In this document: positions 28,584-57,290 of the stretch, piece after piece
Layout: every line of letters begins with the position of its first letter
Numbering within the stretch: the first letter of the stretch is position 1
Source of the DNA: Bacillus gobiensis
GTDB lineage: Bacteria; Bacillota; Bacilli; Bacillales; Bacillaceae
Assembly: GCF_001278705.1 (NCBI RefSeq)
Contig: NZ_CP012600.1
Coordinates: 4,499,864-4,563,863, forward strand
Length of the DNA stretch: 64,000 nucleotides
Reading direction: 5' to 3'
Position numbers and translations under genes: made by a program
Notes under the pieces: model-generated
What the model was told of the DNA's origin: nothing
Seen by the model: the letters and a program-made list of their open reading frames with translations, nothing else
The model's database searches: none

Positions 28584-29579
28584 TTAAGCAAATACAGAAG
28601 TGCTATGAAGCGGCTGAACTTTTGCTTTTGGATCTAAATAGGATTTAGCGTTATTTACAGCAGTAGGTGCCTCTCCAAGACCAGTCGCTATCAATTTTAC
28701 TTTTCCGTCAAATGTACAAATGTCTCCGGCAGCGTACACTCCGGGGATATTAGTTTCCATCTTGGAATTGACAACAATCGAATTTTTTTCAATTTCTAAC
28801 CCCCAATTCTTAATAGAACCAAGAGAAGATACAAAACCAAAGTTAATAATTACTTCATCAACCTCAATGGCTTCTTCAGTGCCTACTGTCACCCTTTCTA
28901 AAATTACTTTGTTAATCCTATCATCGTTTCCAACTAATTCCACTGGAACATAAGGAGTTTTTAAAGTAACGTTCGAAGAATCTAATTGGGTCACACTGTG
29001 TTCATGTGCTCTGAATTTTTCCCTACGGTGAACGAGAATGACTTTCTCAGCAATTGGTTCGAGCATAAGTGCCCAATCAATAGCGGAATCTCCCCCTCCA
29101 CAAACCATTACTTTCTTGTTACGAAATTTCTCCAAGTCATCGATGAAATAATGAATGTTTTTATTCTCATACTTTTCTGATCCTTCAAGCCCTATTTTTC
29201 TAGCGTTAAAAGCTCCAATTCCTGCTGTGATAATAACTGTTCTTGTTAGATGCTCTTCTATATCAGTGGTGAGTTTAATTGTTCCGTCTTCCTTAATATC
29301 AAGATCTTTCACTGTTTGTTGTAAACAAATTTTTGGATTAAACTGCGCCATCTGTTCTTTTAAGCCCGTGATTAAGTCTTTTGCCCGAATTTTAGGAAAT
29401 CCGGCTACATCATAAATGTATTTTTCTGGATATAGGGTAGAGAGCTGCCCGCCAAGCTGAGGTAAGCTTTCAATTATTTTTACGGATGAATTTCGCATAC
29501 CTCCATAGAAAGAAGCAAATAGGCCTACAGGACCTCCACCAATAATTGTAATATCATATATCATCTTATCTTGTTTCAT
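28584..29579 (-). CDS. Ferredoxin/flavodoxin--NADP+ reductase, thioredoxin-reductase type (YumC-like)
   Basis: 331 residues. FAD-binding [20 protein letters not shown] near residue 10, [18 protein letters not shown], an NADP-binding [17 protein letters not shown] near 160 and a final FAD motif GVYAAGDI. No redox CxxC is present, which separates ferredoxin-NADP reductases of this class from thioredoxin reductases. It reduces ferredoxin or flavodoxin with NADPH. No dedicated reductase sits beside the Rieske oxygenase at 35088, so this enzyme is the likely electron source. GGAGG at 29588-29592; ATG 29579 or 29582 is the start. Confidence 0.88.
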
Positions 29580-29858
29580 CATTAAATCCTCCAAAATCAC
29601 TCTACACAATTACTCATAAGATTTTGATTAGAAATGTTAACAGAATTCTACCTAAAACAGCCCAAGCCTCCAAACTGTGCAGTCTCGTGGAAATCCTGTT
29701 AGTTTTAGAAATAGCCGTAAGGGTGGAAGGATTTTCTTCTATTCTGTAAGGCTCTTTCTTTCGTAAACAGAAGTAAAAGATCTGCTGCTTACATTTATGC
29801 CCATTGAATAAAAATGAACTAAACGGTTCTATTGAGTCCAAGATCAGAGCTTCTGATT

Positions 29859-30416
29859 CTACTCCAGATTGGCATGTCTGCTAAACATTGTTTTCGAATT
29901 CATCCCTTTTTTCTCCATAACCTTTAATATAACAGCATCAAAGAATAATAAGAGAGTTTGCTCGAATAGGGATCCCATTGGCTGTATCGTTTTATATTCA
30001 CTGCCTGTTTCAGTTTTAGATTGAGCCGCTAATTTAATAGAAACTTCAGCCATTCTTCCAATAGTGGAATCAGGAAATATTGTGACAAGTGCTACTGTTG
30101 CTTCCAATTTTTTTGCTTTTTCAGCCATGGATACCAGACTCTTTGTTTCTCCCGATCCAGAACCGATAATCAAAATATCCTTCTTCTCCAGGTTAGGAGT
30201 AACGGTTTCTCCTACGACATAGGCGTCTAAGCCCATGTGCATCATCCGCATGGCGAAAGACTTAGCCATAAATCCGGATCGCCCCGCCCCAGCCACAAAA
30301 ACCTTCTTTGATTCGAGGATATAATCTACCAGCTTTTCAGCTTCTTCACTGGATATTAAATCAGCAGAACGGTTTAGCTCTTCGATAATTTCATTAACGT
30401 ATTGGGTTGTCTGCAT
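29859..30416 (-). CDS. hxlB: 6-phospho-3-hexuloisomerase
   Basis: 185 residues, a SIS-domain isomerase that turns arabino-3-hexulose-6-phosphate into fructose-6-phosphate, the second step of the ribulose monophosphate (RuMP) formaldehyde pathway. VFVAGAGRSGFMAKSFAMR near residue 40 and LIIGSGSGETKSL near 85 are the sugar-phosphate loops. It lies 17 bases after hxlA in one operon. In Bacillus subtilis the hxlAB pair is induced by formaldehyde through HxlR. Confidence 0.95.
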   Translation of the reverse strand: MQTTQYVNEIIEELNRSADLISSEEAEKLVDYILESKKVFVAGAGRSGFMAKSFAMRMMHMGLDAYVVGETVTPNLEKKDILIIGSGSGETKSLVSMAEKAKKLEATVALVTIFPDSTIGRMAEVSIKLAAQSKTETGSEYKTIQPMGSLFEQTLLLFFDAVILKVMEKKGMNSKTMFSRHANLE

Positions 30417-30433
30417 AATGGTTGTAACCTTTC

Positions 30434-31075
30434 TTATGCAAAAGTTTCTTGTTTAATTAAGTTTTGCATTTGTGCCGCCACAGCTTTTTTATCTTCGTTA
30501 CCTGTAATACCTCCACCTACAATAACTAGGTCGGGTTGTGATTGCACCACTTCCGGAAGTGTGGCTAACTTAATTCCCCCTGCAACTGCAGTTTTCGCAT
30601 TGTTTACGACACGCTTAATCGTTTGAAGCTGTTCAAAAGGATTTTCTCCCTCTGCTTGAAGGTCATAACCTGTGTGGACACAAATATAGTCTACTCCCAG
30701 TGCGTCAACTTCTTTCGCACGTTGTTCAAGGTCTTTTACATTAATCATGTCAACTAGGATTTTCGCTCCTTGTTTTTTAGCCTCTTCCACAGCCCCCTTG
30801 ATTGTCGCATCGTCTGTTGCTCCAAGAACGGTAATAATATCAGCGCCGGCTTCTGAAGCTTTCATTACTTCATATGCACCTGCATCCATAATTTTAAGAT
30901 CAGCCAATACTCTTAGAGAAGGAAATTCCTCCTTAATCTCTTTTACGGCTTTGAGACCTTCGTTAATTACCACAGGTGTACCGATTTCAACGATATCAAT
31001 GTGTTCTTGAACCTCTTTTACTACTTTCTTTGCTTCAGGAATATTAACAAGATCTAATGCTAATTGAAGTTCCAT
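30434..31075 (-). CDS. hxlA: 3-hexulose-6-phosphate synthase
   Basis: 213 residues, TIM barrel of the OMP-decarboxylase superfamily. It condenses formaldehyde with ribulose-5-phosphate. LQLALDLVNIPEA at the start, VLADLKIMDAGAYEV near residue 60, VDMINV near 110 and CVHTGYDLQ near 135 are the family's active-site strands. GGAGTG precedes ATG 31075. The promoter holds the two-box motif at 31137-31180. In this window it would trap the formaldehyde released by sarcosine and dimethylglycine oxidation. Confidence 0.95.
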   Translation of the reverse strand: MELQLALDLVNIPEAKKVVKEVQEHIDIVEIGTPVVINEGLKAVKEIKEEFPSLRVLADLKIMDAGAYEVMKASEAGADIITVLGATDDATIKGAVEEAKKQGAKILVDMINVKDLEQRAKEVDALGVDYICVHTGYDLQAEGENPFEQLQTIKRVVNNAKTAVAGGIKLATLPEVVQSQPDLVIVGGGITGNEDKKAVAAQMQNLIKQETFA

Positions 31076-55737: not shown

Positions 55738-55873
55738 ATTCTTGGATGTGAAGGGCTGGATGTTAAAGGGCAAAAAGTTGTTTTACTGTTAACCATAGAT
55801 AATTCCTAGAAAAAAGATGAATGACAAAAAAGCCAAAAATCTTTTTATAAAACTACTTAAAGGAGACGTCAAT

Positions 55874-56776
55874 ATGAAGGTCGGTTTAATCGGTTTAGGA
55901 AAAATGGGATTGAACATAGGTAAGAATTTAATTGATCTTAAGCATGAAGTCACGGCTTTTGATCTAAATCAACGGGCTGTAGAAGAAATGGAAAAGTACG
56001 GAGCTAAAGGTACTTCTAGTTTGTTAGAGCTTGTTCAATCATTAGAGCAGCCAAGAGTTCTTTGGTTAATGGTTCCCCATACAGTTGTTGATTCAGTGAT
56101 TAATGAACTTACGCCATTATTAAATAATGGGGACATCGTCATTGAAGCAGGGAATTCTCACTACAAGGAATCCATTAACCGGTACAATCGGTTAAAGCAA
56201 TATGGTGTTAGCTTTATGGATGTTGGAACATCCGGCGGGATGGAAGGTGCCCGTAACGGAGCTTGTTACATGGTTGGTGGCGATCCTGAATCTTGGAATG
56301 TTGTAGAAACTATTTTCCGTGACACTGCAATAGAAAACGGATATTTATATGCAGGAAAAGCAGGAAGCGGTCACTTTCTAAAAATGGTCCATAATGGGAT
56401 TGAATATGGGATGATGGCTGCTATTGGTGAAGGGTTTGATGTTTTAGAGAAAAGCGAATTTGATTATGACTACGAAAAAGTGGCAAGAGTATGGAACAAT
56501 GGGTCAGTGATTCGTTCATGGCTCATGGAGTTAACAGAGCGGGCCTTTTCTAAAGATGAAAAATTAGAAGAAATAAAAGGGATTATGCATTCTTCAGGTG
56601 AAGGGAAATGGACTGTTGAAACAGCTCTCGATCTACAAACAGCCACGCCTGTTATTGCTTTGTCCCTATTAATGCGTTACCGCTCTTTGGAAGTTGATAC
56701 CTTTACAGGAAAAGTAGTAGCTGCTCTACGTAATGAATTCGGAGGACATGCTGTAGAAAAAGTGAGAATACGATAA
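55874..56776 (+). CDS. gnd: 6-phosphogluconate dehydrogenase, decarboxylating (short YqeC/GntZ type)
   Basis: 300 residues. GLIGLGKMGLNIGKNLIDL opens the Rossmann fold, VGTSGGMEGARNGACYMVGG near residue 120 and GSGHFLKMVHNGIEYGMM near 173 hold the active-site Lys and Asn. This is the short class, often NAD-dependent, seen with methylotrophic RuMP genes. It makes ribulose-5-phosphate, the acceptor for HxlA, and CO2. AAAGGAGAC before ATG 55874 sets the start; the frame is open from 55817. Confidence 0.92.
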   Translation: MKVGLIGLGKMGLNIGKNLIDLKHEVTAFDLNQRAVEEMEKYGAKGTSSLLELVQSLEQPRVLWLMVPHTVVDSVINELTPLLNNGDIVIEAGNSHYKESINRYNRLKQYGVSFMDVGTSGGMEGARNGACYMVGGDPESWNVVETIFRDTAIENGYLYAGKAGSGHFLKMVHNGIEYGMMAAIGEGFDVLEKSEFDYDYEKVARVWNNGSVIRSWLMELTERAFSKDEKLEEIKGIMHSSGEGKWTVETALDLQTATPVIALSLLMRYRSLEVDTFTGKVVAALRNEFGGHAVEKVRIR

Positions 56777-56906
56777 ACGATTGTGACAATATTTGTTTTA
56801 AAAGATTGTTTAAGAAGAGAAGGTTTTCAGTAAGTAGTTACTGCTCACTATGGAAGGTAACGAACTCCAAGCATTCGATTAAAAAAGGACGCGTGTCAGT
56901 ACACTA
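56777..56906. other. Short gap upstream of the lyxose isomerase remnant
   Basis: Would hold the missing N-terminal coding region of the lyxose isomerase gene, but no frame here matches it. No clear promoter seen. Confidence 0.3.
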
Positions 56907-57290
56907 ATGGGGATACTTCCTAAAGGGAAAACAACGCATGCAAAAGAACTTGTCCCGTTCCCTTATCAAACATGCCCTGAGCATAAACACCCAAGGCGGA
57001 AAGATGGAACTCCTGGGAAGCAAGAAACATTCCGCTGCCGCTTTGGACGTATCCATTTGTTTGTGGAAGGCGAGGCAATTGTGCCACCGACTGTTCTGCC
57101 GCCAGTGGAAGACCTTGAGTATTATACAGCCCAGAAGGAAATTATTCTTCATCCTGGTGAGCAATATACAATTGAGCCCGATACGCTCCACTGGTTTCAA
57201 GCTGGTGAGCTCGGAGCGATCATCTCTGAGTTTTCCTCGAACAGTGATGATGCATCGGATGTGTTTACTGATGTTCGTGTAAAGCGATAA
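56907..57290 (+). pseudogene. D-lyxose ketol-isomerase-like cupin, N-terminally truncated
   Basis: 127 residues matching the C-terminal three-quarters of D-lyxose ketol-isomerase (about 167 residues, YdaE in B. subtilis): [48 protein letters not shown] and [10 protein letters not shown]. The cupin metal ligands (His, His, Glu, His) are kept. About 45 N-terminal residues are missing and no good ribosome site precedes ATG 56907. It may be a decayed gene, or a shortened cupin using an aldose/ketose phosphate near the RuMP genes. Confidence 0.65.

What the first reader, a model, noticed from the sequence alone, without database searches (positions are those of the whole stretch)
28584..57290. A near-complete betaine-to-pyruvate route joined to a dissimilatory formaldehyde (RuMP) cycle in one island
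Seen: genes for betaine uptake (opuAA-AB-AC), a Rieske monooxygenase, a GcvT-fused dimethylglycine enzyme, sarcosine oxidase, the whole glycine cleavage system plus lipA, glyA, both serine dehydratase chains, hxlA-hxlB, hxlR, zwf and gnd, in about 29 kb. Known: betaine and sarcosine oxidation release formaldehyde, and HxlAB with Zwf and Gnd can oxidise it to CO2. Inference: the cell uses betaine as carbon, nitrogen and energy source rather than only as osmoprotectant, with formaldehyde turned into NADPH by the cycle. I do not know of a described Bacillus island with this full combination.
Basis: partly seen in the sequence, partly recalled or inferred. Interest (0 to 1): 0.9.

Follow-up and report, generated by a model that had tools for sequence, protein, structure and literature searches.

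The report
Betaine eater with rewired formaldehyde disposal
This Bacillus-type genome carries one cluster that looks able to strip betaine down to glycine and pyruvate while burning the released formaldehyde through a sugar-phosphate cycle, and the enzyme that in other bacteria hides that formaldehyde on folate seems to have lost its folate chemistry here.

Summary
The genes are really there, and the betaine-to-pyruvate reading is well supported, though by sequence and gene context only. The cluster runs 28584-56776. In 15 Bacillales dimethylglycine-oxidase (DMGO) loci, hxlA lies near in 10, in different gene orders; it is near in 0 of 74 loci from other phyla. A box, GTGYGTACTT, precedes hxlA and zwf here and in relatives, and hxlA in 16 of 20 DMGO-less loci examined, so zwf-gnd probably belong to an HxlR formaldehyde regulon. 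The new point is in the DMGO: its FAD site is intact, but the folate-site Asp (Asp552 of the Arthrobacter enzyme) is Arg. All 38 scored members of the Bacillales clade lost this Asp and two further folate-domain residues kept in 79 of 79 outgroup proteins; that domain evolves faster than the FAD domain only here. folD or purU is near in 18 of 74 outgroup loci and 0 of 15 Bacillales loci. Best reading: this clade switched DMGO methyl disposal from folate to free formaldehyde and the RuMP cycle. No enzyme was assayed.

The parts
28584..29609 (-). YumC-type ferredoxin-NADP reductase; proposed electron donor for the Rieske oxygenase
   Evidence: 3lzw/6gas, 511 bits; paralogues of 79% and 65% elsewhere in the genome; directly after gbcA in G049, G061, G063, L021
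29859..30416 (-). hxlB, 6-phospho-3-hexuloisomerase
   Evidence: TIGR03127 259.9 bits, cut-off 160
30434..31075 (-). hxlA, 3-hexulose-6-phosphate synthase
   Evidence: TIGR03128 299.9 bits, cut-off 200
31137..31146 (-). candidate HxlR box GTGCGTACTT, 71 nt before hxlA
   Evidence: 3 exact hits of GTGYGTACTT in the window, 0.12 expected; conserved before hxlA in relatives
31415..33859 (+). dimethylglycine oxidase with intact FAD site and altered folate site (Asp552 equivalent, residue 548, is Arg)
   Evidence: 1pj5/3gsi alignment; residue tables
33874..35025 (+). monomeric sarcosine oxidase-like flavoenzyme
   Evidence: 7exs, 1el5; PRK11259 486 bits, cut-off 257
35088..36236 (+). Rieske oxygenase, proposed betaine monooxygenase (gbcA-like)
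   Evidence: Rieske and iron-ligand motifs conserved in relatives
36625..37992 (+). MFS transporter, substrate unknown
   Evidence: PF00083
38112..39404 (+). opuAA/proV-type ATPase
   Evidence: TIGR01186 371.9 bits, cut-off 326.6
39401..40264 (+). opuAB-type permease
   Evidence: TIGR03416 311 bits, below its cut-off of 363
40233..41219 (+). opuAC-type binding protein (listed TTG start overlaps opuAB; true start probably further down)
   Evidence: PF04069 238.8 bits, from residue 72
41417..41767 (+). small ResA/thioredoxin-like protein; also in G448
   Evidence: PRK03147 24.1 bits, weak
42575..43501 (-). lipA, lipoyl synthase
   Evidence: TIGR00510 401.7 bits
43624..45108 (-). gcvPB
   Evidence: 786 bits
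45101..46498 (-). gcvPA
   Evidence: 660 bits
46455..46868 (-). gcvH
   Evidence: 170.7 bits
47107..48222 (-). gcvT, with Tyr, Asp and Asn of the folate site present
   Evidence: 481 bits
48237..49118 (-). L-serine dehydratase alpha chain
   Evidence: TIGR00718 345.7 bits
49118..49630 (-). L-serine dehydratase beta chain
   Evidence: TIGR00719 139.7 bits, cut-off 161.2
49646..50896 (-). glyA, serine hydroxymethyltransferase
   Evidence: 657.5 bits
51065..51273 (-). glycine riboswitch, tandem form likely
   Evidence: RF00504 55.8 bits at 51065-51171, over gathering; RF03166 91 bits at 51071-51273, below its gathering score of 110
51573..51582 (+). candidate HxlR box before nitrilase-GNAT
   Evidence: same before the nitrilase of G373
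51581..52561 (+). nitrilase-family protein (listed TTG start overlaps the box; true start probably further down)
   Evidence: PF00795 102.6 bits
52571..53239 (+). GNAT-family protein
   Evidence: PF00583 35.2 bits
53722..54084 (-). hxlR
   Evidence: PF01638 133.4 bits
54149..54158 (+). candidate HxlR box between hxlR and zwf
54226..55737 (+). zwf, one of two copies in the genome
   Evidence: TIGR00871 555.5 bits; other copy 47% identical
55817..56776 (+). gnd, NAD-type 6-phosphogluconate dehydrogenase
   Evidence: TIGR00872 475.4 bits, cut-off 297.2

Best explanation
The island lets the cell use glycine betaine as carbon, nitrogen and energy source. OpuA imports betaine. A GbcA-like Rieske oxygenase, fed from NADPH by the YumC-type reductase and an unidentified ferredoxin, takes off the first methyl. 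DMGO takes off the second and a monomeric sarcosine oxidase the third, giving glycine. Because the folate site of this DMGO clade has decayed, all three methyls leave as free formaldehyde. HxlA and HxlB fix it on ribulose 5-phosphate, and Zwf and Gnd oxidise it to CO2 and regenerate the acceptor, yielding NADPH and NADH. Formaldehyde, through HxlR and its box, switches on hxlAB, zwf-gnd and nitrilase-GNAT. Glycine, through a riboswitch, switches on glyA-sda-gcv, which turns two glycines into one pyruvate with a balanced folate budget. Shown: genes, synteny, box, residue changes, relaxed constraint. Inferred: substrates, formaldehyde release, regulation, electron route.
For: Family hits. hxlA near DMGO in 10 of 15 Bacillales loci versus 0 of 74 outgroup loci, in at least five gene orders. 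hxlA is somewhere in all 13 DMGO genomes that could be searched; in the order sample strong hxlA is in 8 of 8 DMGO genomes versus 122 of 389 others. Box: 3 exact in the window, 0.12 expected, 0 of 100 shuffles reach 3; before hxlA and zwf in all 9 loci where both could be read, exact in 4 and with one mismatch in 5; before hxlA exactly in 16 of 20 DMGO-less loci, 1 more with one mismatch. Folate site: residue 548 is Asp in 79 of 79 outgroup and in 0 of 38 of the clade; Tyr535 and Asn564 likewise 79 of 79 and 0 of 38; Glu643 79 of 79 and 1 of 38. Outgroup-conserved columns lost: 30 of 102 in the folate domain versus 7 of 120 in the FAD domain. At 70-75% FAD-domain identity the folate domain is 57% identical within the clade and 78% in the outgroup. 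folD or purU near DMGO: 18 of 74 outgroup; 0 of 14 Bacillales loci and none in the window, where genome-wide searches put no PF00763 or PF00551 match.
Against: No activity is shown. The Rieske protein scores 231 against a GbcA cut-off of 670, and its nearest solved relatives are 3n0q and the stachydrine and carnitine oxygenases. The oxidase has Phe where 7exs and 3bhf have a His (His269, numbering recalled). Glu replaces Asp in 32 of 38, and a Glu might keep some function. The loss of Asp is one event on the tree, so its link with hxlAB is a single co-occurrence, not a repeated one. P0033 and P0040 (Bacillales) keep Asp but have lost other folate residues; their neighbourhoods were not read. 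hxlA is not near DMGO in 5 of 15 loci: G049 and G063 (40 kb), L022 and L060 (10 kb each side), and L023 (contig cut). In G049, G063 and L023 it is elsewhere in the genome or on another contig; L022 and L060 could not be searched. hxlA is also common without DMGO (122 of 389). OpuA genes are missing in 6 of 15 loci, G061 and G373 among them. No box stands directly before DMGO, msox, gbcA or glyA in the relatives, apart from a one-mismatch site in L023, so control of the demethylases is unknown. No ferredoxin gene was found in the island. 1 of 4 zwf genes in DMGO-less loci carries the box. The folD/purU contrast rests mostly on Streptomyces. The 0.75 is for the pathway as a whole; loss of folate chemistry on its own I put at 0.6 (novel case).
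Confidence: 0.75

Rival explanations
1. The DMGO folate domain still works with a rewired site (Glu or neighbouring Asp547 taking the catalytic role), so DMGO feeds methylene-THF and only GbcA and sarcosine oxidase release formaldehyde.
For: Glu at the site in 32 of 38 and an Asp just before it in 37 of 38; the domain is retained in the full-length members, and Arg683 and other residues are kept in 38 of 38.
Against: The window protein has Arg, others Gln, Lys, Asn; Tyr535 and Asn564 are lost in 38 of 38 and Glu643 in 37 of 38; the domain is less conserved than the FAD domain in this clade but not in the outgroup; no folD or purU near in 15 loci.
Confidence: 0.2
2. The oxygenase acts on another quaternary amine (proline betaine, carnitine, choline derivative) and the island is for that compound or for several.
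For: Nearest solved relatives include 3vca (stachydrine demethylase, name recalled) and carnitine monooxygenase 6y8j; GbcA cut-off not met.
Against: It sits with DMGO and a sarcosine oxidase-like gene in 13 of 15 Bacillales loci and OpuA-type uptake is near in 9 of 15; a related oxygenase is near DMGO in 50 of 74 outgroup loci; the downstream pathway runs through glycine with a glycine riboswitch.
Confidence: 0.15
3. The RuMP genes are only a general formaldehyde defence that happens to sit beside a betaine cluster.
For: hxlA is common without DMGO (122 of 389 genomes) and has its box there too; zwf-gnd and nitrilase-GNAT also sit beside hxlAB in some of those genomes.
Against: A second zwf in the genome; zwf near in 9 of 15 DMGO loci but in 4 of 20 DMGO-less hxlA loci (the stretches are 40 and 16.6 kb, so the fairer count is zwf within 8 kb of hxlA in 7 of 9, five of them one genus); changed gene orders with retained co-location.
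Confidence: 0.12

Closest known systems
Arthrobacter dimethylglycine oxidase (1pj5; Leys 2003, Tralau 2009, Meskys 2001 seen only as reference entries)
   Same: Two-domain FAD plus GcvT enzyme, 716 bits, FAD-linking His and active-site His225 and Tyr259 conserved (roles partly recalled)
   Different: Asp552 and several folate-domain residues replaced; neighbours are hxlAB-zwf-gnd
gbcAB-dgcAB-soxBDAG-purU-glyA betaine clusters of Pseudomonas and Vibrio (PMC12093977, passages seen)
   Same: Rieske oxygenase first, stepwise demethylation to glycine, then SHMT and serine dehydratase
   Different: Here DMGO and a monomeric oxidase replace DgcAB and SoxBDAG, a YumC-type reductase stands in place of GbcB, and purU is not in the window
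Bacillus subtilis hxlR-hxlAB (PMC4776306, passages seen; PMC11577753, introduction passage and reference entries seen)
   Same: HxlR with Cys11 present, hxlAB, formaldehyde detoxification
   Different: Here zwf-gnd and nitrilase-GNAT share the box and the substrate pathway is next door
Dissimilatory RuMP cycle of Gram-positive methylotrophs (PMC5023230, passages seen; the Zwf and Gnd steps recalled)
   Same: Hps, Hpi and an oxidative branch taking formaldehyde to CO2
   Different: Formaldehyde would come from betaine, not from methanol or methylamine

Membership tests
Dimethylglycine oxidase, folate-coupled type | FAD domain with covalent-FAD His, His225, Tyr259 | tested here: met
   Residues aligned (roles partly recalled)
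Dimethylglycine oxidase, folate-coupled type | Folate-site Asp552 and neighbouring GcvT-wide residues | tested here: not met
   Arg at 548; Tyr535, Asn564, Glu643 also replaced
GbcA betaine monooxygenase (NF058607) | Curated score cut-off of 670 bits | tested here: not met
   231.4 bits
GbcA betaine monooxygenase | Rieske Cys-His pairs and mononuclear iron motif | tested here: met
   Motifs present in the window and the 13 relatives aligned (motif roles recalled)
GbcA betaine monooxygenase | Activity on glycine betaine | not testable with these tools
   needs assay
Monomeric sarcosine oxidase / N-methyltryptophan oxidase family | Curated cut-offs | tested here: inconclusive
   PRK11259 passed (486 vs 257); TIGR01377 not (318 vs 480); flavin-linking Cys and active Lys kept, His269 position is Phe (roles recalled)
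Dissimilatory RuMP cycle | HxlA, HxlB, Zwf, Gnd over cut-off | tested here: met
Dissimilatory RuMP cycle | Phosphoglucose isomerase and lactonase in the genome | not tested
   not searched
HxlR regulon | HxlR-family protein and shared box before hxlA and zwf | tested here: met
HxlR regulon | HxlR binds the box and responds to formaldehyde | not testable with these tools
   needs binding and expression assay
Glycine riboswitch | Rfam gathering score | tested here: met
   RF00504 55.8 vs 32; tandem model RF03166 91 vs 110 not met

The most novel reading that the evidence does not exclude
One Bacillales clade of dimethylglycine oxidases has lost folate chemistry, so the enzyme releases formaldehyde on purpose, and betaine demethylation has been rewired from the folate pool to an HxlR-controlled RuMP oxidation cycle. 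Betaine then feeds a methylotroph-like energy cycle inside an ordinary heterotroph, with glycine keeping the folate pool to itself.
Probability: 0.6. Interest if true: 0.68.

Novelty: new variant of a known kind. Interest (0 to 1): 0.6.

Why it matters
DMGO and its animal relative are known for handing the methyl group to folate so that toxic formaldehyde is not released (PMC5082570, passage on the human enzyme; title of Tralau 2009). A clade that dropped this shield while keeping a formaldehyde-burning module next door would show how a protection step can be traded for energy, and gives a sharp biochemical test. It would also add Bacillales to the bacteria that grow on betaine, a common osmolyte; the list of aerobic betaine degraders in the introduction passage of PMC12093977 names none of them.

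Tried and rejected
Chance gene mix: rejected, since the modules stay together in several gene orders. Island unique to this strain: rejected; near-full sets are in G061 and G373, although 0 of 43 other genomes of the genus have the DMGO, so gain by transfer is likely (no donor test was made). Misalignment of the Asp: rejected, because 3gsi shows Ala where 1pj5 has Asp in exactly this column, and Tyr and Asn at fixed distances agree with the T-protein 1woo (roles of 1woo residues recalled). Ferredoxin in the island: a scan of small Cys-rich ORFs between 20000 and 60000 gave none convincing by eye. Outgroup gene-family clustering was too noisy in high-GC genomes to use. Promoter and terminator scans were near or below shuffle level. 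Structure prediction could not be run, the machine being busy. Papers: nine searches on this subject and one on T-protein in the held library listed none that by title or abstract start describes this combination; the library lacks most subscription papers, and only passages of five papers were seen.

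
Full report
What was claimed and what is there. All these genes are present as intact ORFs with the expected families. The island is better drawn as 28584-56776. It lies in a single 4.6-Mb contig; the window is 4499864-4563863 of it.

The first ORF (28584-29609) is a ferredoxin-NADP reductase of the YumC type. Two more copies, 79% and 65% identical, are elsewhere in the genome, and in four relatives (G049, G061, G063, L021) the gene follows gbcA directly. 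That makes it a likely stand-in for GbcB, although a ferredoxin partner was not found. A glycine riboswitch, probably tandem, lies before glyA. The genome has a second zwf (47% identical) and second gcvT and gcvPA (about 60%), so the island copies may be dedicated ones.

Synteny. I compared 15 Bacillales DMGO loci: the window, ten genome loci of 40 kb, and L021, L022, L023, L060 of 12 to 23 kb. Within them: gbcA in 14 of 15 (L023 is cut by its contig end), msox in 13 of 15 (no hit in L021 or L023), hxlA in 10, zwf in 9, OpuA genes in 9, an FNR of 58% or more in 7, the gcv cluster in 5, hxlB and gnd in 4. Near-full sets are in the window, G061 and G373, the last two without OpuA. Gene order differs: hxlAB is divergent from DMGO here, hxlR-hxlA-DMGO run in one direction in five genomes of one genus, and zwf-gnd-glyA-sda-gcv-lipA follow downstream in G061. 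Of 74 outgroup loci (actinobacteria, many of them Streptomyces, cyanobacteria, Chloroflexota and others; up to 10 kb each side, mean length 20 kb, shortest 3.6 kb) none has hxlA, hxlB, zwf, gnd or this FNR at E 1e-6. Five of the ten hxlA-positive loci are from one genus; collapsed by genus, by hand, it is about 6 of 9. In the window's own genus 0 of 43 other genomes have the DMGO; 4 of 80 in the family and 8 of 397 in the order sample do, the window included; in the class sample only the window does (1 of 398).

A formaldehyde regulon. GTGYGTACTT occurs exactly three times in the window, before hxlA, before nitrilase-GNAT and between hxlR and zwf; 0.12 are expected and 0 of 100 shuffles reach three. 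With one mismatch allowed the count (4) is at chance level, so only the exact form is informative. I chose the pattern after seeing the promoters, so the independent evidence is in relatives: it stands before hxlA (all 10 copies that could be read, in 9 loci, the window included) and before zwf (9 of 9), exact in four loci and with one mismatch in the five genomes of one genus. It is not before DMGO, msox, gbcA or glyA in the relatives, apart from a one-mismatch site in L023. In 20 hxlA loci of genomes without DMGO the box stands before hxlA exactly in 16, with one mismatch in 1, and worse or absent in 3. It is therefore most likely the HxlR box of hxlAB in general, with zwf-gnd as part of that regulon here. 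In DMGO-less hxlA loci zwf-gnd is near in 4 of 20, with the box before zwf in 1 of those 4, so the joined module also exists without betaine genes. HxlR control of hxlAB is known in B. subtilis (PMC4776306, passage).

The DMGO. It aligns over its length with Arthrobacter DMGO (716 bits) and keeps the FAD-linking His and the active-site His225 and Tyr259 (roles partly recalled). At Asp552, the column where 3gsi has Ala, the window has Arg548. In the 120 best homologues all 79 non-Bacillales proteins have Asp; the 38 scored members of the Bacillales clade (the window and 37 homologues) have Glu (32), Arg (2), Gln (2), Lys (1) or Asn (1); P0033 and P0040 keep Asp. Tyr535 and Asn564, at the spacing of Tyr83, Asp96 and Asn112 in the T-protein 1woo, are lost in 38 of 38, Glu643 in 37 of 38, Arg637 in 37 of 38 (outgroup 78 of 79 Arg), Tyr649 in 35 of 38. 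The true GcvT of the same island keeps them all. Of columns conserved in the outgroup the clade lost 30 of 102 in the folate domain and 7 of 120 in the FAD domain (Fisher 3e-6). At matched FAD-domain identity the folate domain is 16 to 22 points less identical within this clade than within the outgroup in five of six bins and 9 points in the highest. In a tree of 54 of these proteins the 38 form one clade (100/100) and P0033 and P0040 fall outside it (midpoint root), so by parsimony the Asp was lost once. P0033 and P0040 already show the folate-domain deficit, so decay may have begun before the Asp went.

Context agrees. folD or purU-like genes are near DMGO in 18 of 74 outgroup loci (folD mostly directly downstream in Streptomyces) and in 0 of 14 Bacillales loci; in the window's genome such genes lie elsewhere. 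Fisher for 0 of 15 against 18 of 74 is 0.035, not corrected for kinship. In Vibrio betaine clusters PurU recycles the folate adduct (PMC12093977, passage).

How it probably works. Each betaine would give three formaldehydes, two of them by oxidases that also make H2O2, and one glycine. RuMP oxidation would yield one NADPH and one NADH per formaldehyde, which would pay for the NADPH used by the oxygenase. Two glycines become one serine through GCS and SHMT, then pyruvate through serine dehydratase; the folate pool stays balanced most simply if DMGO does not load it. All of this paragraph is inference from known pathways.

Limits. No assay; the substrates of the Rieske oxygenase and of the MSOX-like enzyme rest on context. 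The folate-to-RuMP switch is one evolutionary event, so the association cannot be counted as repeated. Presence of hxlA genome-wide in 8 of 8 DMGO genomes versus 122 of 389 is not corrected for kinship, five of the eight being one genus.

Noticed in passing
51581-53239: Nitrilase-family plus GNAT pair under the formaldehyde-type box, also beside hxlAB in DMGO-less genomes (L131, L138, L139) and in G373 with the box; function in formaldehyde stress unknown, perhaps adduct repair.
   Followed up: partly
33874-35025: Monomeric sarcosine oxidase-like enzyme has Phe where 7exs and 3bhf have an active-site His (His269, recalled); Phe in all 12 relatives aligned, so specificity may differ.
   Followed up: partly
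41417-41767: Small thioredoxin/ResA-like ORF after opuAC, also after opuAC in G448 (77%).
   Followed up: no
27852-28583: Stretch with remnants reading like a GH25 lysozyme N-terminus next to the island edge, perhaps a decayed gene at a junction (named by eye, no search).
   Followed up: no
21507-21551: PreQ1 riboswitch on the minus strand (RF00522), outside the island.
   Followed up: no
G448 (L122/L123): Two hxlA copies in one 40-kb locus, one beside DMGO without a recognised hxlB and one in hxlAB-hxlR-zwf-gnd; five genomes of one genus also have an hxlA beside DMGO with no hxlB found in the 40 kb.
   Followed up: partly
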